Shown here in pieces: positions 11,788 to 36,580 of a stretch of 59,395 nt of DNA. This DNA comes from Yersinia thracica (GTDB lineage Bacteria > Pseudomonadota > Gammaproteobacteria > Enterobacterales > Enterobacteriaceae). The notes beneath the pieces were generated by a model, which saw only the letters and a program-made list of their open reading frames with translations, searched no databases and was not told the origin of the DNA. Position 1 is the first letter of the stretch; the number at the start of each line of letters is the position of its first letter. The position numbers and the translations under genes were made by a program. The stretch spans positions 1-59,395 of the forward strand of contig NZ_CABHXX010000027.1 in the NCBI RefSeq assembly GCF_902170565.1, given 5' to 3'.

Positions 11788-12768
11788 ATGCGAAATTATA
11801 TAATGGCAACTTTATTACTCTCTGCTAGTTTTGTCACAAATGCTAATTCAGCTTCTTCAATGGCCCCCCAACAAGCACCACAAATTATTGCTCACCGGGG
11901 TGGGACTGCCGATGCCCCTGAGAATACCATTCCAGCGATTAAAAAAGCCTTGGCTAATGGTGCGGATGCCATCTGGATAACATTACAGTTATCAAAGGAC
12001 AATATTCCGGTTTTGTATCGCCCAGTTTATCTCAATGAATTAACCGATAAATCAGGTAAGGTTTCTGACTATACCGCACAGCAACTCGCCCAAGTCGACG
12101 CCAGCTTTAATTATAATAAAAAGCATAATATTCAACCAAAATCTGGCTCACACATTGGCATTCCTACACTTGATGAGGTATTGAAAACCTTTCCTACCAC
12201 GACATTCTATCTCGACATTAAATCCCCAGATGCAGACCCGGAAAAATTTGCTAAGGCACTGCAAACAATACTTAAAACAACACCTAAAGGCGAAGATAAC
12301 CGACTGGCTCGCACCCGTGTTTACTCCACAGAAGACCGTTATTTAGATGCGCTGGGTGTACTCAATAAAAAACAGAAAAAACAGAATGTACTCAATGGGA
12401 AAAACGAAGCTGCAGATGAAATTCAACGCTTTGAAAGCCGCGCCTTTACGCGAACGCAATTAGCCAACATTACCATGGATCATAAGTGTAATTTGCCAAC
12501 AGATAATGAAGAGCGTTGGTATGGTCTGGAGTTACATCGCAAGGTTGAAGTTGTAGAAAAATACACGTCGGGAGAAGGCCGCTCTAACGCTATATTAAGT
12601 TGGGATAAAGAAGCCGTTGACTGTTTCCGTAAAAACGCTAACGCACATATTATTTTCTTCGGAATTAATACTCCAGAAGATTACCAGAAAGCGAAAGAAT
12701 TAGGTGCCAATGGAGTGATGGTAGATTCTCCAGCGATGTTTAAGAAGATAGTTCATGGCAATAAATAA
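11788..12768 (+). CDS. Secreted glycerophosphodiester phosphodiesterase-like protein, active site apparently degenerate
   Basis: The 326-residue product has a signal peptide (MRNYIMATLLLSASFVTNANS) and a GDPD TIM-barrel that opens with the catalytic-looking AHRGGTADAPENTIPA. In active enzymes the next strand carries an ExD metal pair and a downstream His (GADxIELD...VxHD). Here the matching positions read GADAIWITLQLSKD and PVLYRP, so E, D and H are replaced by W, T and R. Thus hydrolysis of glycerophosphodiesters is doubtful by sequence. The frame extends upstream to 11653, but ATG 11788 gives a clean signal peptide. It is monocistronic, with a 12-bp-stem terminator after it. Its role is unknown; a periplasmic lipid- or sugar-phosphate-binding role is possible. 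Confidence 0.75.
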   Translation: MRNYIMATLLLSASFVTNANSASSMAPQQAPQIIAHRGGTADAPENTIPAIKKALANGADAIWITLQLSKDNIPVLYRPVYLNELTDKSGKVSDYTAQQLAQVDASFNYNKKHNIQPKSGSHIGIPTLDEVLKTFPTTTFYLDIKSPDADPEKFAKALQTILKTTPKGEDNRLARTRVYSTEDRYLDALGVLNKKQKKQNVLNGKNEAADEIQRFESRAFTRTQLANITMDHKCNLPTDNEERWYGLELHRKVEVVEKYTSGEGRSNAILSWDKEAVDCFRKNANAHIIFFGINTPEDYQKAKELGANGVMVDSPAMFKKIVHGNK

Positions 12769-12792
12769 TTAGAAAGCCAGCGAGAAATTAAT

Positions 12793-12824
12793 ATCCCCCA
12801 TTCAATATTCATTGAATGGGGGAT
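12793..12824. terminator. Bidirectional hairpin between the GDPD-like gene and nqrM
   Basis: A perfect 12-bp inverted repeat (ATCCCCCATTCA / TGAATGGGGGAT) with an 8-nt loop lies 24 bp past the GDPD-like stop and 43 bp past the converging nqrM stop. T runs are modest on both sides. Confidence 0.7.
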
Positions 12825-12867
12825 CAAAACATCTCTTTTATATACAGTAAAACAATTCAAATCCTAA

Positions 12868-13095
12868 CTAGAGAATGCGATATTGCTCCAATGCTTTCTG
12901 GCGCGCCGCCTCTTTAGCTAACCGTTTTTTGCGCGAATCACAAGGCTCGGGGCAATCACACACTTTTTCCATTCCTAAAGCCCCAAGACCTCCGCAACTG
13001 CCCTGCAAGGTTTTACGTTTTACGATATAACCCAGCGACAACCCCGCGATGGCTAAGAGAAAAAAAACAAAAGACGCGATAAAAACAGTCAACAT
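12868..13095 (-). CDS. nqrM: NqrM, Na+-NQR maturation protein (DUF539)
   Basis: NqrM is a small membrane protein required for maturation of Na+-translocating NADH:quinone oxidoreductase; it is thought to deliver iron for the Cys4 site within the NqrD/NqrE subunits. The 75-residue product has one N-terminal transmembrane helix (residues 3-25) and the conserved cysteines in GSCGGLGALGMEKVCDC and EPCDSRKK. It is the last gene of the nqrABCDEF-apbE-nqrM cluster, 12 bp after apbE. Confidence 0.93.
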   Translation of the reverse strand: MLTVFIASFVFFLLAIAGLSLGYIVKRKTLQGSCGGLGALGMEKVCDCPEPCDSRKKRLAKEAARQKALEQYRIL

Positions 13096-13107
13096 AATCT
13101 TCTCCTA

Positions 13108-14115
13108 TCAAAGCCGCTTTTGTAGATACGGTTTGAATGACTCAGAAGAGTGCTCCTCAAAGCCTTCATCAGTTTTGACTATCATAAACACCGGAATACC
13201 CAGCAAATTAGCCAATGCCATCCCGCGTTCTGGCCCAAGGACACCTAAACCCGTCGAAAGTCCGTCGGCCGTCATACAACTCGGATCTAAAACAGTAATT
13301 GAGACTAAACGATGGTTAATTGGCCGACCTGTTTCGGGATCAATGGTATGTGAGTAACGCACACCATTTTGCTCAAAATAATTACGATAATCACCAGAGG
13401 TAGCTATCGCCATACGACCGGGTTCGATAATTTCTTGAGTACTTTGTGTCGAGCCTGCAATTGGTTTTTCAATTGCGATGCGCCAAGGTTTATTTTCCCC
13501 ATTATTACCACGAGTCCGGACTTCCCCGCCAATATCGACCATATAGTTATCGATATTCTGCGCTTCCAAATATTCGGCAACCACATCTACGCCATATCCT
13601 TTAGCTATAGCAGAAAGATCGACATACAGCTCGGGAATACGTTTTACCAAGGCACCATTTTCTACTGCTAAATTATCAATGCCAACCCATTCCTGGCGTT
13701 TAGCAATTTCAGCATCTGTCGGCACCACGTTTGGCCGCCCTTCAGGGCCAAAACCCCATAGATTAACCAATGGCCCGACCGTCACATCCAGCGCCCCATC
13801 AGTCAAACGGTTAATACGGATAGCCTCCCGTACCACTTTGGCTGTCGCGGCTGAAACAGGAAAGGGTGTATCCACTTTCTGACGTTTGTTGAAACGGCTC
13901 AATTCAGAGTTTGGCCGATATGTCGACATTTGATCATTAACCTGTTCCAGCTCGCGGTCTATTTCCTGCTGTAGCTGTTCCGGGCTGAGAGTGGTTGAGT
14001 CACCCATATACTTAATTGAATATGAGGTGCCCATGGTTTTACCTTCAAGATTGATTTGCTCAGGGCCACACCCCGTTAGCAGCAAAACGCCCACCGCAAC
14101 CATCAACCAATGCAT
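13108..14115 (-). CDS. apbE: FAD:protein FMN transferase, lipoprotein
   Basis: ApbE transfers FMN from FAD to Thr residues of target flavoproteins, here expected to be NqrB and NqrC encoded in the same cluster. The 335-residue product has a lipoprotein signal (VGVLLLTGCGPEQ, Cys16), followed by MGTSYSIKYMG, the flavin/Mg region DLSAIAKGYGVDVVAEYL and ATSGDYRNYFEQNG with YSHTIDPETGRP. I chose ATG 14115; the frame extends upstream to a GTG at 14145 through a short tandem duplication (GCGAAGACATATA twice). An ERIC separates it from nqrF. Confidence 0.93.
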   Translation of the reverse strand: MHWLMVAVGVLLLTGCGPEQINLEGKTMGTSYSIKYMGDSTTLSPEQLQQEIDRELEQVNDQMSTYRPNSELSRFNKRQKVDTPFPVSAATAKVVREAIRINRLTDGALDVTVGPLVNLWGFGPEGRPNVVPTDAEIAKRQEWVGIDNLAVENGALVKRIPELYVDLSAIAKGYGVDVVAEYLEAQNIDNYMVDIGGEVRTRGNNGENKPWRIAIEKPIAGSTQSTQEIIEPGRMAIATSGDYRNYFEQNGVRYSHTIDPETGRPINHRLVSITVLDPSCMTADGLSTGLGVLGPERGMALANLLGIPVFMIVKTDEGFEEHSSESFKPYLQKRL

Positions 14116-14147
14116 TATATGTCTTCGCGCTATATGTCTTCGCACAA

Positions 14148-14284
14148 TATCCCCAATTTGCCCTTCGTACTTGAAGCTTCAGGGGTGTTAGCTGCTCCCA
14201 CTCACCCGAATCACTTACCTGAGTAAGCTCATCGGGACTCGTTTGTTTGCACCTACCTGCAACTCTAATTTCTTTGGGCATATA
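14148..14284. repeat. ERIC element between nqrF and apbE
   Basis: About 137 bp with ERIC landmarks on the reverse strand (AAGTGATTCGGGTGAGTGGG, GAGCTTACTCAGGTAAGTGA) and terminal inverted repeats (TATCCCCAATTTG / TTTGGGCATATA). It fills most of the 202-bp space between nqrF and apbE and would be transcribed in the nqr operon. Confidence 0.85.
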
Positions 14285-14317
14285 GTAATGGCAGTAAAAA
14301 ACTCGAGTGGCGGCAAG

Positions 14318-15541
14318 TCAGCCACCAAAGTCATCGAGCATAATGTTTTCATCTTCCACACCAAGGTCTTTTAACATCTTAATGACTGCCGCGTTCATCA
14401 TTGGTGGGCCACACATATAGAATTCACAATCTTCAGGTGCCGGATGATTTTTAAGATAATTTTCTAATAACACGTTATGAATGAAGCCGGTATAACCCGT
14501 CCAATTGTCTTCTGGTTGCGGATCAGACAAAGCAACATGCCAACGGAAATTATCATTCTCAGCCTGTAACTGATCAAAATCTTCTTCATAGAACATCTCG
14601 CGCCGTGAACGCGCGCCATACCAGAAGCTAATCTTGCGCTTAGAATGCAGCCGTTTAAGCTGATCAAAAATATGCGAGCGCATAGGCGCCATACCCGCAC
14701 CACCGCCAATAAAGACCATTTCGGCATCAGTATCTTTAGCAAAAAACTCACCAAATGGTCCAGAAATAACCACTTTATCACCCGGTTTCAGTGACCAGAT
14801 GTAGGAAGACATAATCCCCGGAGGGGCATCCGGAACTGAGGGTGGTGGCGTGGCGATACGCACGTTCAGCATGATAATACCGCGCTCTTCTGGGTAGTTT
14901 GCCATGGAATAAGCACGCACCGTCGGCTCGGTAACCACTGACTCAAACCGGAACAAATTGAATTTATCCCAATCGCCGCGATATTCCGCTGGCACATCAA
15001 AATCCGCATATTTTATTGTATGAGGCTCGGCCTCAATTTGAATAAAGCCCCCTGCACGGAATGGCACAACCTCACCATCAGGAATTTTAAGTTTCAGCTC
15101 TTTGATAAATGTCGCTTTATTATCATTAGAGATAACTTCGCATTCCCACTTTTTCACCCCAAAGATTTCTTCCGGCAATTCAATTTTCAGGTTTTGCTTC
15201 ACACTAACCTGACATGCTAACCGGCAACCTTCTTTTGCTTCCCGCTTGGAGATATGAGAAAGCTCGGTCGGCAAAATATCCCCGCCGCCTTCTTTGATGG
15301 TTACCCGGCACTGCCCACAGGAACCGCCACCGCCACACGCTGAGGAAACGAAAATGCCATGGCTGGAAAGCATGTTGAGCAGCTTATCCCCTGCCGGAGC
15401 AGTAAAACTTTTATCCGTATCTTCATTAATATCAACTGTGATATCACCGGTATTCACCAACTTTGACTTGGCAAACAAAATCATCACCGTCAATGCCAGC
15501 ACAATGAGGGTGAACATGACTACGCCCAGAATTATTTCCAT
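14318..15541 (-). CDS. nqrF: Na+-NQR subunit F, NADH-oxidising flavoprotein with 2Fe-2S
   Basis: NqrF takes electrons from NADH through FAD to a 2Fe-2S centre, the entry point of the Na+-pumping complex. The 407-residue product has one N-terminal transmembrane helix (about 3-25), the ferredoxin cysteines in [15 protein letters not shown] with a further Cys in GCRLACQVS, the FAD motif RAYSMANYP, the nucleotide motif [13 protein letters not shown] and [13 protein letters not shown] near the C-terminus. Length equals the Vibrio protein. It is the last structural nqr gene. Confidence 0.97.
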
Positions 15542-23099: not shown

Positions 23100-25547
23100 A
23101 TGATGGTTCTTAGCATTGTTGCCTTGCTGGTTCTTATTGGTGTGCTGTTCTATCACCGGGTGAACCTGTACCTCAGTAGTTTGGTTCTGGTGGTTTACAC
23201 CGCCGCTATGGGTGCTGCGCAGTTATGGTCATACTGGGTATTATTGCCGCTGGTGATTGTTCTGTTGCCTCTGACCCTCACGCCACTGCGCCAATCCCTA
23301 TTTTCAGCCCGTGCATTGCGCATGTTCCGTAAAGTCATGCCAGCCATGTCACGAACTGAAAAAGAAGCGATTGATGCGGGTACCACTTGGTGGGAAGGGG
23401 ATTTGTTCCAGGGCCAACCTGACTGGAAGAAACTGCACAATTATCCCAAACCGCAATTAACCGCAGAAGAGCAAGCTTTTATCGATGGGCCGGTTGAAGA
23501 AGCCTGTCGTATGGCGAATGATTTCCAGATTACCCATGAATTAGCTGATTTACCGCCAGAACTATGGGCTTATTTGAAAGAAAATCGCTTCTTTGCGATG
23601 ATCATTAAGAAAGAGTACGGCGGCCTTGATTTCTCAGCCTATGCTCAAGCCCGGGTATTGCAAAAATTGTCTGGTGTATCGGGGATTTTGGCCATCACCG
23701 TCGGCGTACCTAACTCCCTCGGCCCCGGTGAATTACTGCAACACTATGGGACTGAAGAGCAAAAAAATCATTATTTACCGGGTTTGGCCCGTGGCGACGA
23801 AATTCCTTGTTTCGCTCTGACCAGTCCGGAAGCAGGTTCAGATGCCGGTGCCATCCCAGATACCGGGATAGTTTGTAGGGGTGAATGGCAAGGTAAACAG
23901 GTGCTGGGCATGCGCCTGACCTGGAACAAACGCTATATTACCCTCGCACCTATCGCCACGGTACTCGGGCTGGCTTTCAAATTATCTGACCCTGAGCATT
24001 TGCTGGGTGAGACAGTTGATTTGGGGATTACCTGCGCGCTTATCCCGACCAATACCCCAGGGGTGGAAATTGGTCATCGCCACTTCCCGTTGAATGTGCC
24101 ATTCCAAAATGGCCCGACGCGCGGTAATGATATCTTTGTGCCCATTGACTACATTATTGGCGGGCCTCAAATGGCCGGTCAGGGCTGGCGGATGCTGGTA
24201 GAATGTCTGTCAGTTGGGCGCGGAATTACCTTGCCGTCCAACGCCACGGGTAGCTTGAAAAGTGTGGCGATGGGAATTGGCGCTTATTCCTATATCCGCC
24301 GTCAGTTCAAAGTCTCAATCGGCAAAATGGAAGGAATCGAAGAGCCATTGGCGCGCATTGCCGGTAACACTTATGTGATGGATGCCGCCGCCACCTTAAT
24401 TACCAGCGGCATTATGCTGGGCGAGAAACCGGCGGTATTGTCCGCCATCGTAAAATACCATTGTACTCATCGTGGCCAACGCGCGGTCATGGATGCAATG
24501 GATATTGCTGGCGGTAAAGGCATCTGCCTTGGCCCGGCCAACTTTATTGCTCGCGGTTATCAGGGCGCGCCTATCGGTATCACCGTGGAGGGCGCTAACA
24601 TACTGACCCGCAGCATGATTATCTTCGGTCAGGGCGCTATCCGTTGCCATCCATTCGTGCTTGATGAAATGGCCGCCGCGCAATCTAACGATGTTGCCGC
24701 CTTTGATAAAGCGCTGTTTGGTCATCTGGGCCATGTGGGGAGCAGCAAAGTCCGCAGTTTCTGGCTGGGGCTGACCCATGGCCGCACCAGTGCCACGCCA
24801 ACCAAAGACAGCACTCGCCGCTATTATCAGCATCTCAACCGGCTGAGCGCCAATCTGGCATTGTTATCTGATGTCTCGATGGGGGTACTGGGGGGCAGTC
24901 TGAAACGCCGCGAACGTATTTCTGCCCGCTTGGGGGATATTCTTAGCCAAATGTATTTGGCGTCGGCTACCTTGAAACGCTATGAAGATGAAGGCCGCCA
25001 GAAAGAAGATTTGCCGCTGGTGCACTGGGGGGTGCAAGATGCCCTGAATCAGGCGGAACAAGCGCTGGATGATTTACTGCGTAACTTCCCGAATGGCTTT
25101 ATTGCTGGGGTCATGCGCTTGGTTGTCTTCCCATTTGGTCGTGTACATCAAGCGCCATCAGACCGTCTGGATCACCAGTTGGCGCAGTTGCTGCAAGTTC
25201 CGTCAGCCACCCGCAGCCGGATTGGTCGTGGTCAATATCTGACACCGAGCGAGTTTAACCCGGTCGGTTTGCTGGAAGCAGCATTACTGGATGTCATTGC
25301 AGCAGAGCCAATTCATAAGCGCCTGAGTAAAGAAGCGGGTAAGAGCCTGCCATTTACCCAACTGGATAAACTGGCTAAACGCGCATTGGCTGAAGGGAAA
25401 ATTAATGCTGAGGAAGCCGCAATACTGACCAAAGCAGAAGCTAGCCGCCTGCGCTCTATTAATGTCGATGAATTCGAGGCTGATGAGCTGGCCGCCAAGC
25501 CGGTGGTAAAGCAGCCCACGAAACAACGGCAGACTGAAGCTGCATAA
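23100..25547 (+). CDS. fadE: Acyl-CoA dehydrogenase FadE
   Basis: FadE performs the first oxidation of each beta-oxidation cycle, converting acyl-CoA to trans-2-enoyl-CoA and passing electrons to ETF. The 815-residue product matches E. coli FadE (814 aa). Two hydrophobic N-terminal segments (about 3-20 and 25-60) imply membrane association. Acyl-CoA dehydrogenase signatures include [17 protein letters not shown] and the C-terminal DUF1974 domain. A FadR box and AGGAG Shine-Dalgarno sequence lie upstream; a strong terminator follows. Confidence 0.96.
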
Positions 25548-25591
25548 GGGTATTAGCCTTATTGATGTGAGTGTCTCGCTCTTAAAACTAA

Positions 25592-25616
25592 GCCTCCAGT
25601 CATTGGAGGCTTTTTT
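25592..25616. terminator. Terminator between converging fadE and the glycosyltransferase gene
   Basis: Stem GCCTCCA / TGGAGGC with a 5-nt loop is followed by TTTTTT on the plus strand; on the minus strand TTAGTTTTAAG follows, so it may serve both genes. Confidence 0.85.
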
Positions 25617-25648: not shown

Positions 25649-27490
25649 TCACGAACAATCATCCAGTAGATCACGGACAATCACCCCGAACTGCTCGGGT
25701 TTGCCGGTAAATAACACATTATCGGGCTGAATCTGCAACAGCCGTTGGCGTAAATCATTCCGCCATTTTTTATCAGTAATTAGCCGAACCGTCACCGCGA
25801 TATATTCAGCCAAATCATGGGCAATTAACTTTTCATCCAATCCCAGCCGGCGGAATAGCCCCTCATCTATATGTTCGTGAACTTCGGCCCCGCTCAGACA
25901 CACTCCGGGCAACCCCTGACGCACGGTATCGACGATGCCATTGGTGTTGCCAAAAGGAAATGGATTGATAAACAGGTCACACTGATTAATCACCTGCAAA
26001 TAATCCAAATACCCCAAGTGTTCATAGATTTTAGCTTGAGGAACAATCTCATTAATCGCCTTTTCCATCACTCGATGGGTGATACCCCAACAAAAACCCA
26101 CTAGAAAATGAAATACCACCGGCGTTGATGTTTGCTGAGCAATTTCAGCGCAAGTCGCTAAAAATCGAGGATTAATTTTCATCGCGGAGGCACAAACAGC
26201 AATATGCACTGCTGGCCGCTCATCAAAATGCGATATGGGTTCCGGCTGATTGATATTGGCAGGTGGCACGTAAGGCAGGCAATCTTTGGGTAATGAGACA
26301 ACTTTCTCTGAGAAACACGCTATATCTCCCAGATAATCCTCTTCGACTAAGACCGCATCAATATAATCAGAATGGGTGGTCGCGGGGTGCCCCAACGCCA
26401 TCACTTGCAAGGGGGCCAACCGCAAGTTAGTCAGTGCAATAGTCAGTGGGAACATACCGACACTGGGGAAATAAATAACGTCCGGTCGCAGTTTCTGCGC
26501 CAATGCCACAATGGTCTCCACCGCCCCCGCTCGACTCACCTCAGTGAAGTCATCAAAGACCTCCCGAGTGATGGCATCAGTAGCTTCAACAATGGTGACT
26601 CCGTGAGTCGAAAACTGCTCACGAGCTGCGCGTAAGGTACTGGAATGAGTACGATAAATTGAATGGCCGCTGTTAAACCATTCTAAAACAACCAACATTA
26701 AGGGCTTAGTGCGTGATGGCGGTGACAACTCATTATCAGATAGCCCTTTGTGAAGCAGTGTATTACGCAAATGAAAATTAATGCTGCGTTTTATGGCGTG
26801 CTTTTGTGCCATATCAGCATAACTGCAATGCATGTAAACATCGTGCAAAATACGTTCAGGCAGATGCTCAAGACTCTCCAGGGTTAAGAGTTTTTCAGGT
26901 AGCCAGTCCAACAGAAGTTCACGTTTTGCATGCCCGGCCACACTGGGTAAAATGCGCGGTGATAATAATGCCAAAAATAGAGCTGCTGCTGCATGCGGGT
27001 TAAATTGCCACAATGTGTCTGGCTGAAGCGGAACGCCCGATTCAGGTAAATACGCCAGACAAAATTTCAGGAAATTATTTTTCTCAAATCGCAGAGGATG
27101 AGCACACCCCTCCCCCGCTTGATTAAGATTAGTAATAACATGATCCGCATGACCAAACGGGGAGGCGGCGAAAATTAATGCAATCCAGCGGTGGAAATTA
27201 ATCAGTTGTAAAAAACCTTTATCTGATAAGACAAATCCGGGATCAGAAAATAGGTGGCCAATGGCCGCCGCTAACCGATTACAATAATACTCCTGCTGCT
27301 GTAATGGCTGTTTATTAAGAGAGAAAACCTCCCAGCGGCCATAGTGGGTATCCAATTGTTCCAGCATCAATATCAAGACCCGCCCCGCCTCCTCATAGCG
27401 CCGCACACAAACTAAAAACTCGAAATAAGGTAATGAAAAGGCTGTCGAGTTCTCCACCATTTGTGTTATTTCATCTGTTTTGTTCACCAT
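25649..27490 (-). CDS. HMW1C-type cytoplasmic N-glycosyltransferase (GT41)
   Basis: HMW1C/NGT enzymes transfer a hexose, usually glucose from UDP-Glc, to Asn of N-x-S/T sequons of adhesins in the cytoplasm before secretion. The 613-residue product has the family length (Actinobacillus NGT about 620). The most conserved part is the C-terminal nucleotide-binding lobe: NPFPFGNTNG at about 509-518, then DTVRQGLPGVCLSG and EVHEHIDEGLFRRLGL; ALGHPATTHSDYIDAVL lies in the central part. The start has GGAGG 7 nt upstream. It follows the exoprotein gene by 66 bp and is the last gene of the B-A-C locus, so the exoprotein is its probable substrate. Confidence 0.92.
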   Translation of the reverse strand: MVNKTDEITQMVENSTAFSLPYFEFLVCVRRYEEAGRVLILMLEQLDTHYGRWEVFSLNKQPLQQQEYYCNRLAAAIGHLFSDPGFVLSDKGFLQLINFHRWIALIFAASPFGHADHVITNLNQAGEGCAHPLRFEKNNFLKFCLAYLPESGVPLQPDTLWQFNPHAAAALFLALLSPRILPSVAGHAKRELLLDWLPEKLLTLESLEHLPERILHDVYMHCSYADMAQKHAIKRSINFHLRNTLLHKGLSDNELSPPSRTKPLMLVVLEWFNSGHSIYRTHSSTLRAAREQFSTHGVTIVEATDAITREVFDDFTEVSRAGAVETIVALAQKLRPDVIYFPSVGMFPLTIALTNLRLAPLQVMALGHPATTHSDYIDAVLVEEDYLGDIACFSEKVVSLPKDCLPYVPPANINQPEPISHFDERPAVHIAVCASAMKINPRFLATCAEIAQQTSTPVVFHFLVGFCWGITHRVMEKAINEIVPQAKIYEHLGYLDYLQVINQCDLFINPFPFGNTNGIVDTVRQGLPGVCLSGAEVHEHIDEGLFRRLGLDEKLIAHDLAEYIAVTVRLITDKKWRNDLRQRLLQIQPDNVLFTGKPEQFGVIVRDLLDDCS

Positions 27491-27556
27491 TATCAGTCCT
27501 CCTTGTCACTCCGACATCACGACTTATCTAACGAATTTAGCGAGCTAAAAACTCCG

Positions 27557-30500
27557 TTATTCCCGATCTGATAGCCAAGGTAGTGGTTTCCAGCGGCCCA
27601 AAACATGCTCGTCACAAATTTCCTGTTTGGTGGTGACATAATCTGAAGCTTGGGTGGTTAGGCCCTCAGGGATACAGGCCCTGATACTGATATTTTCAGC
27701 GATATCATGCTCAGATTCGGTCACGATAGCGGGAGGTAACTGCTGCACTTCGAGGGAGCTGAGAGTCTGGCTTAGTGTCTTCAGTAAACTGCCAGATTTA
27801 TCCCCTATCTGAGGTTGCGCTGTTGGCTCTGAGGTTGTTTTCTCTTTTGAAATCGGCGTGGTCGGGTCAGGTCTAATTCTCCCCCCGGTTGTATTTTTAT
27901 CAATCGGTTTGCTATTGATTGTCACATTTTCACCAATGTTTTCCGGCATGGTGATAAACACTGGTGGCTGACCTAAGCCGGTATTCCCGCTAACCGCAAT
28001 GTCAGTTATCAACGCATCATCGTCGAGGAAAACACCGTGGTTATTACCTGAATTACCGTTTATTACGCCACCGTTAACGATGCCATCCACATGTACTCCA
28101 TGGCCATTGTTAGAAGCATCCCCCTCAATGGTGGTATTACCGTTATTGGTTATCGAGCCGTTGATCTCCACACCATGCCCATGGGTAGAGTTACCTTTTA
28201 TAGCAATGTTTTCGAGGGTGTTATTGCCGTCCAACTGCACCCCGGTGCCGGTCTCACCGGTGGCGTTGCCGGTGACATTAAGTGGATCATTCTCCCCACC
28301 GCCAGTGAGCGCGACATTCGGGGCCACATCCACCCCGCTGCCGTTGGCGGTGTCGCCGTGCACCGCACTGCCATGATTGCCGGTCAGATCACCCGCGATC
28401 TCCACCCCTTTGCCGTCAGGGCTGTTGCCGTTCAGCGTGGCGTTATCCAGTTGGCTATCGTCATCAATTTTGATGCCAGAACCCGTATCTGAGGTGCCAT
28501 TGACCGTGCCGCCCGCAATCGTGCCATCCAGTTCAACGCCCTCTCCCGTATCCGCCTTGCCGCCAATTGTGGTATTGCCCTTGTTGGTCAGCAGGCCATC
28601 AATATCCACCCCGGTACCGCCAGTGGCATTACCGGTTAAGGTTGTGTTATCGAGGATGTGATTACCGCCCAACTGCACGCCAGTGCCTTGATCCCCCGTG
28701 GCATTGCCAGCCACCGTCAGCAAATTACCTATTCCTGCCCCCGTGAGGTTGGCATTTTTGACCACATCAACACCCATTCCGTTGACCGTGTCACCCTGTA
28801 CGGAACTGCCGTTCCTGCCAATCACGTCTGCGGTGATAAAAATCCCTTTACCCTCGCTGCTATTACCATTGAGGGTGCTGTTATCTAGCGTCGTTTCCCC
28901 ACCGACTTTAACCCCACTACCATTAGTGGATATCCCATTGATAATGCTGCCATTAATCGCACCATCCAACCGCACGCCACTACCGCTAGCCACCTGACCG
29001 GTCAGTGTGGTGGCTCCATTGCTCGTCAGCGGGCCGGTAATATTGATACCAATACCATCGGTGGCGCTACCATTTAAGGTTGTGTTAACAAGGGTGTTAT
29101 TGCCCTCTAACTGAATACCCGCGCCTTTATCGCCAGTTGCATTACCGTTGATAACTAACAGATCGTCCGAGCTGCCCCCCGTGAGAATGACATTTCTATC
29201 GATATGCACACCAATGCCATTGACCACCTCACCCTGTACTGAGCTGCCGTGGCTGCCGGACAGGTTTCCAACGATTTCTATCCCCTTGCCATCGTTGCTA
29301 TTGCCGACCAGCGCGGCATTGTTAAGCACAGTGCTGCCATCAACGCTCACCCCGCTCCCCGTCGCTGAGATGCCATTTATGCGACTATCGTCAAGCACGC
29401 CATTCATCACTTTCACACCGATGCCGCTGGTCGCAGTCCCATTCACCACACTGGCACTCAGCAGGCCATTAACCTGCACACCAATACCGGTGCCGGACGC
29501 GGTGCCATTCAATCGCGTATGACCTTGGTTGGTAAGTGGGCCAGTGATATCCAGTGCAACACCATCTACAGCCGAGCCATTTAAGCTGGTATTACTTAAA
29601 TCGTTGTTGCCATTGAGTTTTATTCCAGTACTGAAATCACTTATCGCCACGCCATTTAACGTCAGTAAATCCGCTTCACTGGTGCCAGTAACATTTAAAT
29701 TCTCACCAATATCAATGCCATAACCGATACCATCGGTGGTGCCATTAATAAAACTCTGATGAACACCTTTTATATCACCGGTAACTTCCACCCCGTTGCC
29801 ATTAGTACTGCTGCCATTGAGCGAGGCATTATCCAGCATCACATGGGTGACAATACTGGAACCCGGTAGTGAATCAACTTTGATGCCGCTGCTATTAATT
29901 GATCTCCCGGTCAGTGCAGTATCAGTGATGTTGGCATTACCGCTAATGCGCAGAGCTTCGGCATTGATTGAACTGCCAGTGACATTAATACGATTAATTT
30001 GATGTTCTGCACTGAAGAGGTGAACACCAGTGCCATCGGTACTGGTACCTTCAATAGTGACCCGGCCGCTAGCGTTATTAACCACGCCGGAAATAGCCAC
30101 TCCGCTGCCAGTAACACTGCTACCTTTAATTAGCGTGTCACCGTCACCATTTAATACGACTGTTTTATTACTGGTAGGGAAATTAATGCCGACGCCGTTG
30201 GTGGCGCGCCCCTCCATTATTAGAGAACCATTATTATTAATCGTTAATTTTTTGGGGCTGGTATAGATTATGCCATTGCCACCCGCGGTAGTTTGTACGC
30301 CTTTATTTTCACCGAGAAGAGATAATTGGCTACCCTTGGCAATATTGAGTGTATTAGCACCACTAAATTCAATCCCTTTACGGGTCGCACCGGTGCCCTC
30401 TGTCTCGCCTTTAAAGGCGATATTCCCTTCAACCGACAAGGTACTATTGGCTCTAAAAATAAGTGCCGCACCCTGCGTAGTATTCAGTGCTTTGCCGACA

Positions 30501-33500
30501 AATGACCCATTACTAGCCACTATGGCATTATTACCACCAAAGCTTAAGGTGCCACTTTTGCCAGCCATTAATGGAGTCACCGACTCAGAATAAACAGCAA
30601 CATTACCTAGCGTGGCATTAAGATTAATGTTATTAAAATAAACATTACCTGACCCATAAGAAGACCCATCAATATTAATGTTTTTATTAGCTGATGTCAG
30701 ATTAACATTATCCAAATCAATAGATGTTCCTTGAACAGCTCCGTTACCATTCTTCCCTGTAATAGTAATATTCCCCTGCGCAATAATATTATTACGGGAG
30801 TCATCCGAAGAACCTTTAATATAAATCCCTTCAGATGAAACAAGCGACGCGCCATTCAATGTAATATCTTTTTGGGCATTTAATGTGCTATTAGCCTTAA
30901 TATAAATTCCTTTGTTATTGGTTGCACTTACATTAGCGTTAATACCACCTATTGTTGCTGTGATATTAGTGCTGTCCAATATCAACCCATCACCACCATT
31001 AGTAGTAGAGATAAAGTCAATCTCATTTGCTGTAAGATTGACATTGGCAAACGCCAGACTTTTTGAACCATTATTATTTACTGTAAAATTTCCATTTTTA
31101 GTTTCAATATTAGCACCAGCAATACCAACACCTCCACCTGTGATATTGTCATAATTATTGGCTATTAATGATATATCTTTCCCCGCAGTAACATTGATTC
31201 TATTAGATGAGTCCCCAAGAATTGTTATTGCCTCCACAGACTGTACTGAAGTATTGGCAAACAATGCTATATTCTGGCCTGCGGCCATTCCACTCTTACC
31301 TTTCAAATAGAATGCTTTGTTATTGGGAGCACTTAAATTGGTTTTAATATCATTTTTAGCCGTAAGAACTGTATTAGTCATCACCAAGGCATCATTAGCA
31401 CTAATATTACCATTCAATAAGATATTATTGGCACTAATGTTGACATTATTGATAGAGCTACCTTTGATACCACTGATATTTAAATTAAAGTCCCCCTGCG
31501 CATTTATATTGACAAAATCGGCAGCAACAGTGCTACCGGTTTCTGTTCCGTTATTAACCGCCACCATCGATATATTACCGCCAGCCGTTATATTAACCAG
31601 AACACTACTGGCGTTACCGCCTATCTTTATTGCGTCAGCACCCGCAACAGTAGCGTTACTGGTCACGCCTTTCAAATTGATATTGCCACTGGCGCTTACA
31701 TTGGTCTCATCTGAAAACCAAAGCCCTTTAGCTGTGGTAGTGGCATTAGCATTAATATCGCCAGCAGTGGCCGTAAGATTACTATTTCTGGATAAGAAAC
31801 CATTAACCCCGGAGACATTAATATTAAAGTTAACATTATTGCCACTGACATTTGAATCCAGGATCCCCAGCCCATAATTAGACTGAGTGAGAATTTCACC
31901 ATTGATGTCAAATGAAATATTTCCTGACTTAGAAGAAACACTCCCATTAGTAAATTCTACGCCTCCTGACACACCACCATTGGCATTGGCCTGGAATATA
32001 ATATCTTTATCACTGGTAATGGTTGCATTAGTGAATGTTCCCATCAACGAACGGTTAGAATTAGATTTCATAATAAATGACATATTACCCGAACCGGTTA
32101 GGACTGAATCCTCAGATATATCAATACCACGCCACCCTCGCTCATTAACATTACTACTTTCACCCGTTATACGCGTTTCACCCGCCACGGAAAAATTAGC
32201 CGAGTTAATGATATTCACCCCTATTAGAGATGCAACTCCAGTATTGCCTTCCAGAGTGAGGTTACCGACCTCATATTGCCCGCCCGCAATAATAATACGC
32301 GTCGCACTGTTATCATCGGCATGTTTTGCCAGGAAATCCCCTTTATTTAATAAAACATTGCTACTATTTAATGTAATAACAGAGTCTGCGGTGGAATTGC
32401 CCGCTAATAAATTAAGATTCAACCTCCCAGCATTGGACGAAATATTATTGGTAACGATAATATTACCGTCAGCATGCAAGGTTAGCGTAGCATCGCCTCC
32501 GGCGGTTTTATTGATATCCGCATTTACCGTAATATTGCACCAGCGGCAGTTGGTTAAACGGCTATTACTGGTGGTTATCGTCACATTAGTGCCACGATCG
32601 AGTTGAGTATTGATACTGCTATTCAGTATTTGTGCAACATTGGCGGTTGGCGTGAAAACCTGTGCATTTTTCATATATCCAGTAGGGATATCCCCCGTCT
32701 GAACCGCAGCCCCGCTCTCAGCACCACTGCCAACAATATTTACCTCGGCCGGATCGAGCAACCAACTGCCCTTGCTTCCGACCATCGCACTCGTATCAAC
32801 CTGACCAAAAGCTTGTAAATTGCGCTTACTGGATGTTTCTACCTGCCCACCATTACCTGACTGTAACCCACCACGGGCATCAATATCGCCATAGAAGCCA
32901 GTGTAATGTTCAGACCACAACACCGCAGTGCCACCCGCCCCTGACTGTGAGGAGGAAACATTAATCTTCGCGCCTTTATCCATCACAACTGCACGAGCAT
33001 TTTTTATCAGTTTGTTTTTGCCTTGCCAGCCACCGCCGACCAGCACTTTGCCACCGCCAGTGGCTCCATGTGCATCAATTTTGCTCGCGGCAACCAAATG
33101 AATATTTTCACCTTGCAGGATAACATTCCCGCCACGGCCCTGCGGGCTACTGACATCGATGATTCCCTGCTGGCGCACCACCCCATTACTGCCGCCATTG
33201 AGATAAATAACGCCATTCTTTTCAGATAAACCCTGCGCCTGCAAAATACCGGTATTATCAATCACAGTATTCATCAACATCTCTTTACCACGAGCAGTCA
33301 GTTGGATAACTCCGCCGTCAGCCTGAATCAACCCCCCGTTTTTTAGCAAAGTGCTGACCTGCTCACCTTGAATTTGCACTCCGAGCAAGCTGCCGTGATC
33401 CAAATAAAGGGTGACGCGACTTCCGCTCGCTAATGCCACTTTCCCTTGCGGCGCGTTAATAACACCAGACGCCTGATTATCCACCTGCTGACCAATTAGC

Positions 33501-34141
33501 GCGATATAGCCGCCCGAAGTGGTACGCAGATTGGCCTGATTAATCACTTGGCCTTCATGGCCACGGCTGGTCAGCGTATAGCATCCGCTAATAAAATCTT
33601 GATTAGACATAGATTTAGTACTGGCGACTAAACCGCCGACATTAACTTGTGCGCCTTTACCAAATAGAATGCCATTTGGATTAAGTAAAAAGACCTGACC
33701 ATTGGCTTTTAAGTTGCCATATATTTGCGATGCATCGCGGCCCAACACTCGGTTCAGCGCGATACTCTGCGGCCCCGGCTGGTTATAAATAACACTGTTC
33801 CCCTGCGCAATATCAAAACTGCCCCAATTGATCCCCAGCTTGTCGCTTTGCTGAGTCACGGTAAGGGTATTGTTATTAACATCCAACACGCCTTGACCAA
33901 TAACAACCTTGCCGTTAACCGGCAGTGAGGAATGAGCAAATACCAGTAGAGGCAAGGTACCGAGCGCTAATCCTGTCAATATAGCCAGATAACTTAATAT
34001 TCCGACCTTCGTATTATTATCATTAATTAATTTTCCTCCAAGAAACGAAAACGACCGCCCATAAGCTCGAGTCAATTCTCCGACAGCAACCAAACATCCC
34101 AACCGACGACAAAAAACAAGTTTGTATAATTTACTGTTCAT
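27557..34141 (-). CDS. HMW-type two-partner-secretion exoprotein (probable N-glycosylated adhesin)
   Basis: The 2194-residue product begins with an extended type V signal peptide (MNSKLYKLVFCRRLGCLVAV, hydrophobic 48-68, likely cleavage near AHS at 69-71). The TPS/haemagglutination domain follows (about 73-330), with LGINWGSFDIAQGNSVIYNQ and NPNGILFG at 154-161. The rest is a predicted beta-helix of short glycine/asparagine-rich coils full of N-x-S/T sequons. Residues 1497-1957 form nested long repeats. After a Pro/Thr-rich linker (about 2088-2110) the C-terminus has Cys2156 and Cys2176, resembling the disulfide loop that anchors Haemophilus HMW1. The transporter gene lies 40 bp upstream and the glycosyltransferase 66 bp downstream. 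Binding target is unknown. Confidence 0.9.
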   Translation of the reverse strand: MNSKLYKLVFCRRLGCLVAVGELTRAYGRSFSFLGGKLINDNNTKVGILSYLAILTGLALGTLPLLVFAHSSLPVNGKVVIGQGVLDVNNNTLTVTQQSDKLGINWGSFDIAQGNSVIYNQPGPQSIALNRVLGRDASQIYGNLKANGQVFLLNPNGILFGKGAQVNVGGLVASTKSMSNQDFISGCYTLTSRGHEGQVINQANLRTTSGGYIALIGQQVDNQASGVINAPQGKVALASGSRVTLYLDHGSLLGVQIQGEQVSTLLKNGGLIQADGGVIQLTARGKEMLMNTVIDNTGILQAQGLSEKNGVIYLNGGSNGVVRQQGIIDVSSPQGRGGNVILQGENIHLVAASKIDAHGATGGGKVLVGGGWQGKNKLIKNARAVVMDKGAKINVSSSQSGAGGTAVLWSEHYTGFYGDIDARGGLQSGNGGQVETSSKRNLQAFGQVDTSAMVGSKGSWLLDPAEVNIVGSGAESGAAVQTGDIPTGYMKNAQVFTPTANVAQILNSSINTQLDRGTNVTITTSNSRLTNCRWCNITVNADINKTAGGDATLTLHADGNIIVTNNISSNAGRLNLNLLAGNSTADSVITLNSSNVLLNKGDFLAKHADDNSATRIIIAGGQYEVGNLTLEGNTGVASLIGVNIINSANFSVAGETRITGESSNVNERGWRGIDISEDSVLTGSGNMSFIMKSNSNRSLMGTFTNATITSDKDIIFQANANGGVSGGVEFTNGSVSSKSGNISFDINGEILTQSNYGLGILDSNVSGNNVNFNINVSGVNGFLSRNSNLTATAGDINANATTTAKGLWFSDETNVSASGNINLKGVTSNATVAGADAIKIGGNASSVLVNITAGGNISMVAVNNGTETGSTVAADFVNINAQGDFNLNISGIKGSSINNVNISANNILLNGNISANDALVMTNTVLTAKNDIKTNLSAPNNKAFYLKGKSGMAAGQNIALFANTSVQSVEAITILGDSSNRINVTAGKDISLIANNYDNITGGGVGIAGANIETKNGNFTVNNNGSKSLAFANVNLTANEIDFISTTNGGDGLILDSTNITATIGGINANVSATNNKGIYIKANSTLNAQKDITLNGASLVSSEGIYIKGSSDDSRNNIIAQGNITITGKNGNGAVQGTSIDLDNVNLTSANKNINIDGSSYGSGNVYFNNINLNATLGNVAVYSESVTPLMAGKSGTLSFGGNNAIVASNGSFVGKALNTTQGAALIFRANSTLSVEGNIAFKGETEGTGATRKGIEFSGANTLNIAKGSQLSLLGENKGVQTTAGGNGIIYTSPKKLTINNNGSLIMEGRATNGVGINFPTSNKTVVLNGDGDTLIKGSSVTGSGVAISGVVNNASGRVTIEGTSTDGTGVHLFSAEHQINRINVTGSSINAEALRISGNANITDTALTGRSINSSGIKVDSLPGSSIVTHVMLDNASLNGSSTNGNGVEVTGDIKGVHQSFINGTTDGIGYGIDIGENLNVTGTSEADLLTLNGVAISDFSTGIKLNGNNDLSNTSLNGSAVDGVALDITGPLTNQGHTRLNGTASGTGIGVQVNGLLSASVVNGTATSGIGVKVMNGVLDDSRINGISATGSGVSVDGSTVLNNAALVGNSNDGKGIEIVGNLSGSHGSSVQGEVVNGIGVHIDRNVILTGGSSDDLLVINGNATGDKGAGIQLEGNNTLVNTTLNGSATDGIGINITGPLTSNGATTLTGQVASGSGVRLDGAINGSIINGISTNGSGVKVGGETTLDNSTLNGNSSEGKGIFITADVIGRNGSSVQGDTVNGMGVDVVKNANLTGAGIGNLLTVAGNATGDQGTGVQLGGNHILDNTTLTGNATGGTGVDIDGLLTNKGNTTIGGKADTGEGVELDGTIAGGTVNGTSDTGSGIKIDDDSQLDNATLNGNSPDGKGVEIAGDLTGNHGSAVHGDTANGSGVDVAPNVALTGGGENDPLNVTGNATGETGTGVQLDGNNTLENIAIKGNSTHGHGVEINGSITNNGNTTIEGDASNNGHGVHVDGIVNGGVINGNSGNNHGVFLDDDALITDIAVSGNTGLGQPPVFITMPENIGENVTINSKPIDKNTTGGRIRPDPTTPISKEKTTSEPTAQPQIGDKSGSLLKTLSQTLSSLEVQQLPPAIVTESEHDIAENISIRACIPEGLTTQASDYVTTKQEICDEHVLGRWKPLPWLSDRE
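28271..29653 (-). repeat. Long coding repeats in the exoprotein (146-aa units)
   Basis: Residues 1666-1811 and 1812-1957 are two units of exactly 146 residues, each starting GNATGD and roughly half identical by eye; residues 1497-1665 form a related unit lengthened by one coil of about 23 residues. A partial unit starts at 1958. Each unit is built of about 23-26-residue coils with a GxGhxh core and TLNGN-type turns. Confidence 0.8.
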
Positions 34142-34181
34142 TATTCGCGTCCATTAAATCTGACAAATATGCCGATAAGCG

Positions 34182-35996
34182 CTAAAACATCTTATAAGCG
34201 CTAAGCCAAAATTGGTCGTTATCCGGTTGAGGGGTTACAGCCTGGCCGGTACGATGTGCCCAGGCCAGATTCAAAGAATAATCTGCCGTACGGGAGAGAG
34301 TGATATAGGCACCAATGCCAGACAGGTTGATATTATTCCCTGTCAGGCCCTCGACAGGCTGGCGATAATAAGACCCCCATCCTTGATCAAAGAATGCCGC
34401 AAAGGTGATTTGATTTCCCGCTTCAGCCCAAGCAGGGAGAGAAGGTTGCCAGTAGGCACGTAATTCGGTGGTGAAAATAGTACCTTTATCCACCGCCCCT
34501 TCACCAATACCATAAGCGCGAACCGCCAGTGGCCCACCGAACAATAGCTTTTGTGAGCTATCAAGATTCTTACTGGCCATCTGGCCGGTAAATTGATTGA
34601 AGAAAGAAAAATTAGGGCCAAAACCCTGATCATGACCGACACGATAATTAAAACGGGCAAAAGTACCGCTAATATTGGTCAAAGAATTTATGCTCTGACT
34701 GAATTCATCATCCAGTGATAGATGGCCTGCCGTGGTCAGTAAATTAAAATTGCTGAGCCCACGAGAGGCGGTAAACCGACCATTAATACCCAACTCGCCA
34801 GCATCTAAATTGCGTTTTTGTTCCGGTAGCATTATCAATGAATCTCGCATTCTGCCCTGATAATAACCGGTATTCACATCAATTCTGGCTGCTGAATTAC
34901 GGATCCACGGATGGCGTAAATCCATACCCCAAGTATTAGAATTACCGCTAGCATCCAATATAGCGAAAGGCCCCTTAAGCGTATAATCCAGGTGGCTATA
35001 ATTAAACGCGGCACGGGTACCATAAGTATTAATGGGGAAATTGTAGTCCAACAGGCCATTGAATACATCCGCCGAACTGGATAAAATTAAATCTGCGCGT
35101 AATTGATCCCCCCAACCCGTCATATTATTCAACGTACCGCCCACTAATAACCGATTGTGACCGGAATAATCATTACCCTGATTATCGGCACCGATATATC
35201 CCATCGCATTTTGGCTGGGAGTAATATCAGCATAAATTCTCGTCATTCCAGATTGGGTTCCAGGTTTCAATGCTAAAGCAGCATCAACTCCGGGTATTTC
35301 ATTAAGAATAAATGCGGCGCGCTCAAGGCGAGATAATTCAACCGGAGAAGCGGCGCAATTTTTATTGCCCCAAAAAACCACTTTTTTACTGCAACTATTA
35401 CTTTCAATCACTGCAACAACAAAGTCAGTATTCAACCGGCTCTGATTATTGACTTCCGGTTTATCTAATCTGCCAGCAACAACACGCACTATAACAATAC
35501 CGTCATGAACAGTTTGTGGGGGTAATATTGCCTGAGCAGCAACCCATCCTTGTCGTCGATAAAAGCGAGTTACCGCCAATGTCATAGCCTGTAAATCAGA
35601 AAATGTTAATGACCGGCCTAACCAAGGGGCAACCACAGCTTGCAAAGTTTTATTACGCCCATCCAAATCAGTGCTGCCCGAAGACAATAACCCTGTATCA
35701 CCCTCAAAACGGACTTCACGTAGCTCAATATGATTCGCTGTAGCCGTACTGCCTGAGGGCGGTGGCGGAGCCAATGGCGGGAGGGCGATATCTGCTTCAC
35801 GTGGGGCCAGCAGTGACTCTATGGTCGATTGCCGAATTTCATTGCCGATAGCACCAGCATTAGGCACATTTCTTACTTGAGGAGCCGAGACTACGCATAA
35901 GCTAAAAAATAATTGTGAACAAAATAAGAGGAGAAAGAATACTTTTCTACATTTTAATTGGTACCATAAATCTGCTTGACAATAAAAATATCGCAT
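34182..35996 (-). CDS. Two-partner-secretion outer-membrane transporter (FhaC/ShlB/HMW1B type)
   Basis: TpsB proteins are outer-membrane Omp85-superfamily barrels that export the partner exoprotein. The 604-residue product has a signal peptide ending near VSA (38), a proline-rich linker (PPLAPPPPSG), two POTRA domains (from about HIELREVRFEGD through RIYADITPS) and a 16-strand-type barrel ending in the terminal Phe (SAYKMF). The conserved loop-6 motif, VRGY/F in FhaC, reads VRAYGIGEG at 492-500. It is the first gene of the locus; upstream DNA is strongly AT-rich. Order B-A-C differs from the Haemophilus hmw order A-B-C. Confidence 0.93.
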   Translation of the reverse strand: MRYFYCQADLWYQLKCRKVFFLLLFCSQLFFSLCVVSAPQVRNVPNAGAIGNEIRQSTIESLLAPREADIALPPLAPPPPSGSTATANHIELREVRFEGDTGLLSSGSTDLDGRNKTLQAVVAPWLGRSLTFSDLQAMTLAVTRFYRRQGWVAAQAILPPQTVHDGIVIVRVVAGRLDKPEVNNQSRLNTDFVVAVIESNSCSKKVVFWGNKNCAASPVELSRLERAAFILNEIPGVDAALALKPGTQSGMTRIYADITPSQNAMGYIGADNQGNDYSGHNRLLVGGTLNNMTGWGDQLRADLILSSSADVFNGLLDYNFPINTYGTRAAFNYSHLDYTLKGPFAILDASGNSNTWGMDLRHPWIRNSAARIDVNTGYYQGRMRDSLIMLPEQKRNLDAGELGINGRFTASRGLSNFNLLTTAGHLSLDDEFSQSINSLTNISGTFARFNYRVGHDQGFGPNFSFFNQFTGQMASKNLDSSQKLLFGGPLAVRAYGIGEGAVDKGTIFTTELRAYWQPSLPAWAEAGNQITFAAFFDQGWGSYYRQPVEGLTGNNINLSGIGAYITLSRTADYSLNLAWAHRTGQAVTPQPDNDQFWLSAYKMF

Positions 35997-36505
35997 ACAA
36001 ATACACCCATTTTAAATAGGAATGTGCCAACCGAAACAATAATAGCCATCATTATTCAATACTGACCCGTATGGTTAGTAACTTTTAAGTTGATAATTAA
36101 AAAACCTTACTCGCCAACATTTAAATCAACAAAACCAGAATAAATAATAAGTTCATCACCAAAAACCAATTTACTCTTTGTTGTTTCAGACTAATAGGCC
36201 AAACATATTTATCACAAACAGTTATTTGCGTTAGATATTCTTTTATCCAAATGAAATAATAATTAGTTCATACTTTATATTATGTGTAAATATAATATTC
36301 TTATATTAATTACCGCAAAACGACATAATGCACTGAAAAACATGAAGCATAAAAAATATTTCCCGATATTTTGCAAAAAAACAAATCAGCTTAATATAAT
36401 GATATTTTATTATAAATAACATTAACTATAATAAATCGTGATAAAAATTGATTTCATTTTAATAAATGAGTGATAAACATCAAATTAAATTGTCATTTTA
36501 AAAAA
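35997..36505. promoter_or_regulatory. AT-rich region upstream of the secretion locus
   Basis: About 500 bp without a gene, visibly far richer in A+T than its neighbours, with long A/T tracts (36050-36500). It must contain the promoter of the B-A-C locus. The composition suits H-NS silencing of an acquired locus; that is inference. Confidence 0.5.
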
Positions 36506-36530
36506 TAAAACCCCGCATTATTATGCAGGG
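36503..36530 (-). terminator. Rho-independent terminator of mtnK
   Basis: Stem CCCCGCAT / ATGCAGGG (one mismatch, loop TATT) is followed on the minus strand by TTTTATTTTTTAAAA, 50 bp past the mtnK stop. Confidence 0.8.
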
Positions 36531-36580
36531 TCATTATATTTAGATATCATTAATCTATCGTATTGACTCGAGCAATTTCA

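What the first reader, a model, noticed from the sequence alone, without database searches (positions are those of the whole stretch)
25649..35996. Complete glycoadhesin secretion locus in B-A-C order
The sequence shows a TpsB transporter, a 2194-residue TpsA exoprotein and a 613-residue GT41 NGT with 40- and 66-bp gaps, all on one strand. Haemophilus hmw loci are ordered A-B-C. The exoprotein is dense in sequons: I count 11 N-x-S/T sites in residues 1666-1811 and 8 in 1812-1957. HMW1C enzymes modify such sites in the cytoplasm before export. Inference: a heavily N-hexosylated surface adhesin made by a self-contained cassette inserted between fadE and mtnK.
Basis: partly seen in the sequence, partly recalled or inferred. 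Interest (0 to 1): 0.7.

Follow-up and report, generated by a model that had tools for sequence, protein, structure and literature searches.

The report
Yersinia rscBAC-type glycoadhesin cassette
A three-gene cassette in a Yersinia genome probably makes a long sugar-coated surface protein together with its own exporter and its own sugar-adding enzyme; this kind of system is already known, but comparison with relatives adds evidence that the sugar sites are kept by selection.

Summary
Observation confirmed. The exoprotein has 88 sequons against 46.8±5.8 in shuffles; the six other TpsA proteins found in the same genome show no excess, and all 21 Yersinia copies examined do. Asn in sequons are retained better than other Asn; wrong-spacing controls are mostly flat. 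Residues that bind donor and sequon are intact. The cassette lies between mtnK and fadE in its Yersinia carriers; in three non-carriers these genes are direct neighbours. B-A-C order is not new: rscBAC (Y. enterocolitica) and etpBAC (E. coli) are in print, as are Yersinia HMW1C-like genes beside tpsA/tpsB. It is a new member of a known kind. Two details I did not meet in the papers searched: Phe instead of Gln at an acceptor-groove position in all 21 Yersinia enzymes and both Etp-type plasmid enzymes (0 of the 69 others), and an HMW1-like C-terminal Cys pair in all 21 Yersinia exoproteins but not in the one EtpA frame examined. Glycosylation, tethering and adhesion are inferred, not tested.

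The parts
34182..35996 (-). B: TpsB outer-membrane transporter, 604 aa, first gene of the set
   Evidence: ORF; Pfam ShlB 62.2 bits and POTRA_2 47.7 bits
27557..34141 (-). A: TpsA exoprotein, 2194 aa: extended signal peptide (1-32), TPS secretion domain (76-326), sequon-rich beta-helix (about 500-2083), 111-residue tail with Cys2156 and Cys2176
   Evidence: ORF; Pfam ESPR and TPS; EtpA match over residues 3-639, E 3.1e-142; sequons; model; Cys positions
25649..27490 (-). C: HMW1C-like (GT41) N-glycosyltransferase, 613 aa; AAGGAGG stands just before its ATG
   Evidence: ORF; Pfam HMW1C_N, HMw1_D2, GT41; A. pleuropneumoniae HMW1C-like 3q3e E 2e-148; upstream sequence
27893..29146 (-). 146-residue repeat region of A (residues 1665 to about 2082): copies at 1665-1810 and 1811-1956 and a partial copy 1957-2065
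   Evidence: lag 146 in self-comparison; profile of the unit
27560..27892 (-). C-terminal tail of A (residues 2084-2194): low-confidence linker, short predicted helix, then a Cys pair 20 residues apart
   Evidence: model pLDDT under 50 from residue 2084; Cys pair in 21 of 21 Yersinia A C-termini, spacing 9-20
35997..36580 (-). 584-bp A+T-rich region between mtnK and B, with a terminator-like hairpin at 36532-36509 after mtnK; likely holds the promoter of the set
   Evidence: sequence; hairpin (promoter-like sites there are no more frequent than in shuffles); G+C about 0.35
25590..25612 (+). terminator-like hairpin between the convergent ends of fadE and C
23100..25547 (+). fadE, flank; convergent with C
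   Evidence: FadE_coli model 1562.6 bits
36581..37792 (-). mtnK, flank; same strand as the set
   Evidence: MTRK model 504.3 bits

Best explanation
This is the Yersinia rscBAC-type locus. B-A-C are very likely co-expressed. C, a cytoplasmic UDP-hexose:Asn transferase, puts single hexoses (probably glucose, at some sites di-hexose) on many Asn-x-Ser/Thr sites of A before export; A then passes the inner membrane by Sec with its extended signal peptide, its TPS domain docks on the POTRA part of B, and the chain leaves through the B pore and folds outside as a long beta-helix with ladders of sugar-bearing Asn. A C-terminal disulfide loop probably holds the end of A in or near the B pore, as in HMW1, so the protein stays on the cell as a sugar-coated fibre. 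Shown here: genes, order, domains, sequon excess, sequon retention, intact active-site residues, predicted beta-helix, conserved Cys pair, presence/absence at one site. Inferred: co-transcription, glycosylation, sugar identity, disulfide, tethering, adhesion.
For: Domains of all three proteins. Closest solved relatives are an HMW1C-like N-glycosyltransferase for C and EtpA for A (fold search of the repeat half also ranks EtpA first, E 3.7e-5, though with low TM-scores). In the alignment of 92 C proteins, the residues that PMC10507012 (passages) ties to sequon recognition (AaNGT Arg177, His214, Asp215) and to UDP/sugar binding (His276, Ser277, Arg280, Gly369, His370, Lys440, Asn520, Asp524) are kept in the window protein (R179, H216, D217, H276, S277, R280, G367, H368, K438, N517, D521). 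Sequons: window A z 7.1; the six other TPS-domain proteins found in the same genome z -1.1 to 1.4, two of them cut by contig ends; 21 of 21 Yersinia A rows z 5.6 to 19.7, two of them partial. Asn in sequons retained 0.854 against 0.740 for other Asn (columns of residues 500-1300) and 0.764 against 0.638 (1300-2080), both intervals excluding zero, while the same test with N-x2, N-x3, N-x4-[ST] is flat for Asn. B, A and C occur or are missing together: B's best match in the four C-less Yersinia genomes is 29% identical, against 69-79% for the B genes beside C. EtpA, the closest relative, carries hexose at 133 of 166 analysed Asn (PMC11463764, passages).
Against: No glycan, transcript or adhesion was measured. 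C scores 603 bits on NCBIfam's NGT equivalog against a cut-off of 1000. In the repeat half the Ser/Thr test is weak (+0.045, interval -0.009 to +0.096) and one wrong-spacing control (N-x2, Ser/Thr) is positive (+0.141, 0.040 to 0.210). The pairs of orthologues are not independent and the bootstrap is over columns only. Not every C-linked exoprotein elsewhere has a sequon excess: the two H. aegyptius frames give z 0.5 and 1.9, and L031 z 0.7. Sequon Asn are not preferentially in strands in the model (21 of 41 against 31 of 55).
Confidence: 0.86

Rival explanations
1. C is a general cytoplasmic N-glycosyltransferase of the cell whose main targets are other proteins; its place behind A is incidental.
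For: Many HMW1C-like genes have no TpsA nearby: 44 of 71 non-Yersinia loci showed neither A nor B in the stretch held, though stretches are cut and my profiles missed some partners. A. pleuropneumoniae is such a case in print (PMC3012730, passages). PMC8615707 (passage) reports glycan staining of other secreted Y. enterocolitica proteins and mentions a cytoplasmic N-glycosyltransferase.
Against: In Yersinia C is found only with A and B (20 of 20 relatives with C, B beyond the contig end in one) and is missing with B (4 of 4). Sequons are in excess in this TpsA and not in the six others of the genome and are retained by selection.
Confidence: 0.08
2. The sequon density only reflects the Asn-, Ser- and Thr-rich composition and repeat duplication of beta-helix proteins.
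For: Repeats multiply sites: the G013 protein with about 14 copies of the unit has the highest z, 19.7.
Against: Composition-keeping shuffles give half the number; N-x(k)-[ST] at five of six other spacings gives 34-53 (one, three residues between, gives 66) against 88; the excess is as clear in residues 501-1300, outside the 146-residue repeats (43 against 24.7 +- 4.2); six other beta-helical TpsA proteins have none; sequon Asn are retained better.
Confidence: 0.04
3. The locus is a decaying or silent remnant.
For: C is broken in two relatives (G001 and G005), and A is also split in G001; G020, a close relative, has lost the whole set.
Against: All three frames are intact in the window and in 18 of 20 relatives as far as the contigs reach, with all active-site residues kept.
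Confidence: 0.05

Closest known systems
rscBAC of Yersinia enterocolitica (Nelson et al. 2001; not held, seen only through PMC5422565 and PMC3983070)
   Same: Same genus, same B-A-C naming order, RscC named as HMW1C-like and encoded beside tpsA/tpsB (passages).
   Different: I could not read the 2001 paper or align its sequence by name; that the window locus is the orthologue is inferred. The review lists an RscR regulator; no regulator gene lies between mtnK and fadE in the window.
etpBAC of enterotoxigenic Escherichia coli
   Same: B-A-C order (record NC_014232.1); A matches EtpA over residues 3-639; C is 50% identical and falls in the same clade, support 100; same Phe at the acceptor-groove site; EtpA is densely hexosylated (PMC11463764, passages).
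   Different: Plasmid-borne, followed by a DUF2919 gene. EtpA repeats are 228 residues (PMC11463764), here 146. The EtpA frame in that record ends in the repeat region without a C-terminal Cys pair.
hmw1ABC / hmw2ABC of Haemophilus influenzae
   Same: Three-part logic: TpsA, TpsB and a cytoplasmic Asn-hexosyltransferase; C-terminal Cys pair, which in HMW1 is needed for tethering (PMC3983070, passage).

Membership tests
Two-partner secretion (type Vb) | TpsA with N-terminal TPS domain and signal peptide | tested here: met
   Pfam TPS 125 bits, ESPR 36 bits, over cut-offs
Two-partner secretion (type Vb) | TpsB with POTRA and ShlB/FhaC-type barrel, encoded next to TpsA | tested here: met
   Pfam ShlB 62.2 and POTRA_2 47.7 bits, over cut-offs; 40 bp from A. 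One POTRA matched by Pfam
HMW1C-like N-glycosyltransferases (GT41 NGT) | HMW1C N-terminal domain, domain 2 and GT41 catalytic part | tested here: met
   three Pfam models over cut-offs
HMW1C-like N-glycosyltransferases (GT41 NGT) | residues for sequon recognition and UDP-sugar binding | tested here: met
   all those compared are kept except Gln468 (AaNGT), which is Phe466 (residue roles from PMC10507012 passages)
NCBIfam NF049992 UDP-glucose:protein N-beta-glucosyltransferase (equivalog) | curated score cut-off 1000 bits | tested here: not met
   603.3 bits over nearly the full length; not filed under this equivalog
HMW1C-like N-glycosyltransferases (GT41 NGT) | transfer of hexose from UDP-hexose to Asn | not testable with these tools
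   needs enzyme assay
rscBAC / etpBAC type loci | B-A-C order on one strand with C of the EtpC/RscC clade | tested here: met
   clade of 19 intact Yersinia C and 2 plasmid C, support 100
rscBAC / etpBAC type loci | direct sequence identity with the published rscBAC | not tested
   paper not held; held Yersinia genomes of the genome search are unnamed
HMW1-type tethered TpsA | two Cys near the C-terminus | tested here: met
   Cys2156 and Cys2176; a pair in 21 of 21 Yersinia rows
HMW1-type tethered TpsA | disulfide and surface retention | not testable with these tools
   needs experiment

The most novel reading that the evidence does not exclude
The RscC/EtpC enzymes form their own functional class of N-glycosyltransferase: the shared Gln-to-Phe change in the acceptor groove (the same position whose change to Ala raises the activity of the A. 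pleuropneumoniae enzyme, according to PMC10507012) makes them faster or less choosy, fitting the 'low-fidelity' behaviour reported for EtpC, and they have co-evolved with exoproteins whose repeat rungs carry phased Asn ladders, so that in Yersinia a densely hexose-coated fibre stays tethered to the cell by a C-terminal Cys loop, while in E. coli EtpA has lost the tether. Against it: residue preference at +1 around sequons did not clearly differ between Phe-type and Gln-type partners, and sequon density is as high or higher in several Gln-type burkholderial partners.
Probability: 0.25. Interest if true: 0.5.

Novelty: new member of a known kind. Interest (0 to 1): 0.3.

Why it matters
It shows that a bacterial N-glycosylated surface protein system is an old, mostly vertically kept part of Yersinia chromosomes, including species not known here as pathogens, and it gives comparative evidence (own-genome controls, sequon retention) that the sugar sites themselves are under selection. 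The natural Phe/Gln difference in the enzyme and the presence or absence of the Cys tether give ready-made comparisons for asking what sets the fidelity of these enzymes and what the sugar coat is for. For the field as a whole it is a modest addition.

Tried and rejected
Considered and set aside: (1) B-A-C as a new gene order: rejected (also seen in L012). (2) Recent horizontal insertion into this one species: rejected; 21 of 25 Yersinia genomes carry C and the fadE tree with presence/absence needs two changes, best read as one deep gain or loss and one loss in G020; the root there was set by me on the three deep non-carriers. (3) Insertion footprint: the empty sites of G020, G009 and G017 compared with the window gave no clear target duplication; in G020 the left flank aligns up to about window 25593 and the right flank from about 36502, at the two terminator hairpins. 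(4) A link of Phe466 with the residue at +1 of sequons: no clear difference between Phe-type and Gln-type partners; a bias to N-x-T over N-x-S in Phe-type partners (1027 to 687 in 19 Yersinia, 222 to 126 in EtpA plus the Salmonella protein) against 398 to 424 in nine Gln-type rows is confounded by repeats. (5) Sequon Asn confined to one strand face: the secondary structure gave no preference, although sequons cluster at certain distances before a G-x-G-[VIL] motif. (6) Promoter: promoter-like sites in the region scanned are at the shuffled level, 30 against 29.1. (7) Papers by Nelson 2001 and Fleckenstein 2006 are not held. (8) PMC4773443 mentions RscB/RscC in connection with the Rcs phosphorelay, not this locus.

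Rows dropped: in the C tree the two broken C rows L119 and L129 were left out; in the sequon-retention test the split A of L129 and the cut A of L130 were left out, 19 of 21 rows used; the H. aegyptius B gene was not found by my profile.
Full report
What is there. Pfam finds ShlB and POTRA_2 in B, an extended signal peptide and the TPS domain in A, and HMW1C_N, HMw1_D2 and the GT41 end in C, all over the curated cut-offs. NCBIfam's NGT equivalog scores C at 603 bits, under its cut-off of 1000, so I file C as an HMW1C-like enzyme, not under that equivalog. A strong AAGGAGG stands before the C start. The flanks are fadE and mtnK. The 584 bp between mtnK and B are A+T-rich and begin with a terminator-like hairpin.

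Sequons against controls. A holds 88 N-x-[ST] sites against 46.8 +- 5.8 in 2000 shuffles (z 7.1); the secretion domain region 71-330 has one (2.9 expected), residues 501-1300 have 43 (24.7 expected) and 1661-2080 have 25 (9.3 expected). The same genome has six other TPS-domain proteins; their z values run from -1.1 to 1.4, two of the six being cut by contig ends. The A proteins of 20 Yersinia relatives and the window give z 5.6 to 19.7 in 21 of 21 rows, two of them partial. Among 19 complete A proteins, Asn in a sequon is kept in 0.854 of aligned comparisons against 0.740 for other Asn in residues 500-1300, and 0.764 against 0.638 in 1300-2080; the intervals exclude zero, and Asn placed two, three or four residues before Ser/Thr with the wrong spacing shows no such gain. 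Ser/Thr at +2 gains in the first half (+0.081) but not clearly in the second (+0.045, interval including zero), where one wrong-spacing control is positive (+0.141). The comparisons share ancestry, so the intervals are optimistic. Elsewhere the picture is mixed: of the 17 A-type frames over 400 aa found near C genes outside Yersinia, z runs from 0.4 to 17.5, with low values for H. aegyptius (0.5, 1.9) and L031 (0.7); several of these frames are cut or on the other strand.

The enzyme. Against the residues named in PMC10507012 (passages seen), the window C keeps the sequon-reading Arg, His and Asp and the donor-binding residues. One position differs: Gln468 of AaNGT, which touches the residue after the acceptor Asn, is Phe466. 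In 92 aligned C proteins it is Phe in 21 of 21 Yersinia rows (including the two broken genes' longest frames) and in the E. coli and Salmonella plasmid enzymes, Gln in 67 and His in 2 of the remaining 69. PMC10507012 states that Gln469 of the A. pleuropneumoniae enzyme is unfavourable and that its change to Ala improved activity. I did not meet a mention of the Phe variant in searches, of which I saw listings and some passages only. The tree of 90 C proteins places 19 intact Yersinia enzymes and the two plasmid enzymes in one clade (100), apart from burkholderial and Pasteurellaceae-type enzymes, with a warning about long branches.

The exoprotein. Its first 640 residues match EtpA. The last third is built on a 146-residue unit; the window has two full and one partial copy in register, and the closest relative G013 has about 14, which explains its 3952-residue A. 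An AlphaFold2 model of residues 1295-2194 on 13 aligned sequences has mean pLDDT 85.3 and is beta-stranded throughout to residue 2083; the last 111 residues are under 50. Foldseek ranks EtpA first (E 3.7e-5) with TM-scores of 0.25-0.27, too low to claim more than the same class of fold. All 21 Yersinia A rows end in a Cys pair 9 to 20 residues apart. In HMW1 such a pair is needed for tethering (PMC3983070, passage). The EtpA frame of NC_014232.1 has no such pair; the Salmonella plasmid exoprotein has several Cys there.

Distribution. 21 of 25 Yersinia genomes have C. In the 20 relatives with C, A and C are adjacent in all, B is present in 19 and beyond the contig end in one, fadE is present in 20, and mtnK in 18, with contig ends in the other two. 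Two relatives, Y. aldovae (G001) and G005, have C in two frames, and in G001 A is also split; this is described, not mended. G020, G009 and G017 have fadE and mtnK 120, 135 and 136 bp apart; G022 has fadE but no mtnK match. None of the four has a B orthologue. On a fadE tree G020 lies beside the window species and G013 (100/100), the other three form the deep branch on which I rooted it; presence/absence needs two changes. In a sample of 198 genomes of the wider family, only the Yersinia ones (3, the window's included) had a full-length C; the 13 other matches were weak and partial, 22-27% identical, in frames of 667 to 1189 residues. In plasmids 109 records match, 64 from Escherichia and 20 from Salmonella, all under 60% identity.

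What is known. PMC5422565 (passages) lists rscBAC of Y. enterocolitica with RscA limiting splenic dissemination, and etpBAC. PMC3983070 (passages) names RscC, EtpC and predicted HMW1C-like enzymes of Y. pestis and Y. pseudotuberculosis as encoded next to tpsA and tpsB, and says that among them only EtpC had been shown active then; PMC10507012 (2023, passage) lists Y. pestis among the sources of similar enzymes. PMC11463764 (passages) shows EtpA hexosylated at 133 of 166 Asn analysed and calls EtpC low-fidelity. The E. coli record confirms the B-A-C order. So the locus, its order and its likely mechanism are known in kind.

How it most likely works. C modifies A in the cytoplasm, A is exported by Sec and B, folds outside as a long beta-helix carrying Asn-linked hexoses, and is probably held by its C-terminal Cys loop. 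The first and last steps rest on HMW1 and EtpA, not on data for this protein. Confidence 0.86 for the system as a whole; adhesion as its purpose is less certain.

Verdict. A correct and careful observation of a system already known in kind; interest 0.3. The sequon-retention result, the Phe466 signature and the Cys-pair contrast with EtpA are the additions.

Noticed in passing
window 26093-26095 (Phe466 of C); C proteins of L111-L130, L161, L162: Phe at the position that is Gln468 in AaNGT in 21 of 21 Yersinia rows and both plasmid enzymes, Gln in 67 and His in 2 of the other 69.
   Followed up: partly
L129 (G001, Y. aldovae) and L119 (G005): C lies in two reading frames in both; A is also split in L129, while A and B are intact in L119 with sequon z 8.7: a natural case of the exoprotein without an intact enzyme.
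   Followed up: partly
L111 (G013), A at 2829-14690: A of 3952 residues with about 14 in-register copies of the 146-residue unit at 146-residue steps.
   Followed up: partly
A residues 532-535, window about 32537-32548: A CxxC pair just after the EtpA-like secretion part is present in 20 of 21 Yersinia A rows; the remaining row is a fragment that does not reach it. Role unknown.
   Followed up: no
L012 2948-11887: A B-A-C set on a contig labelled Akkermansia muciniphila; its C groups with Comamonadaceae enzymes (75% identity), so the contig is probably mis-binned.
   Followed up: partly
plasmid records: The enzyme gene is named 'cobalt ABC transporter permease' in several plasmid records, which looks like a propagated annotation error.
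   Followed up: no
L161 10908-11402 and L162 12901-13389: A DUF2919 gene follows C in both the E. coli and the Salmonella plasmid; in the window C is followed by the convergent fadE instead.
   Followed up: no
L018, L033, L039, L042: Some burkholderial loci carry two C-type genes near one B.
   Followed up: no
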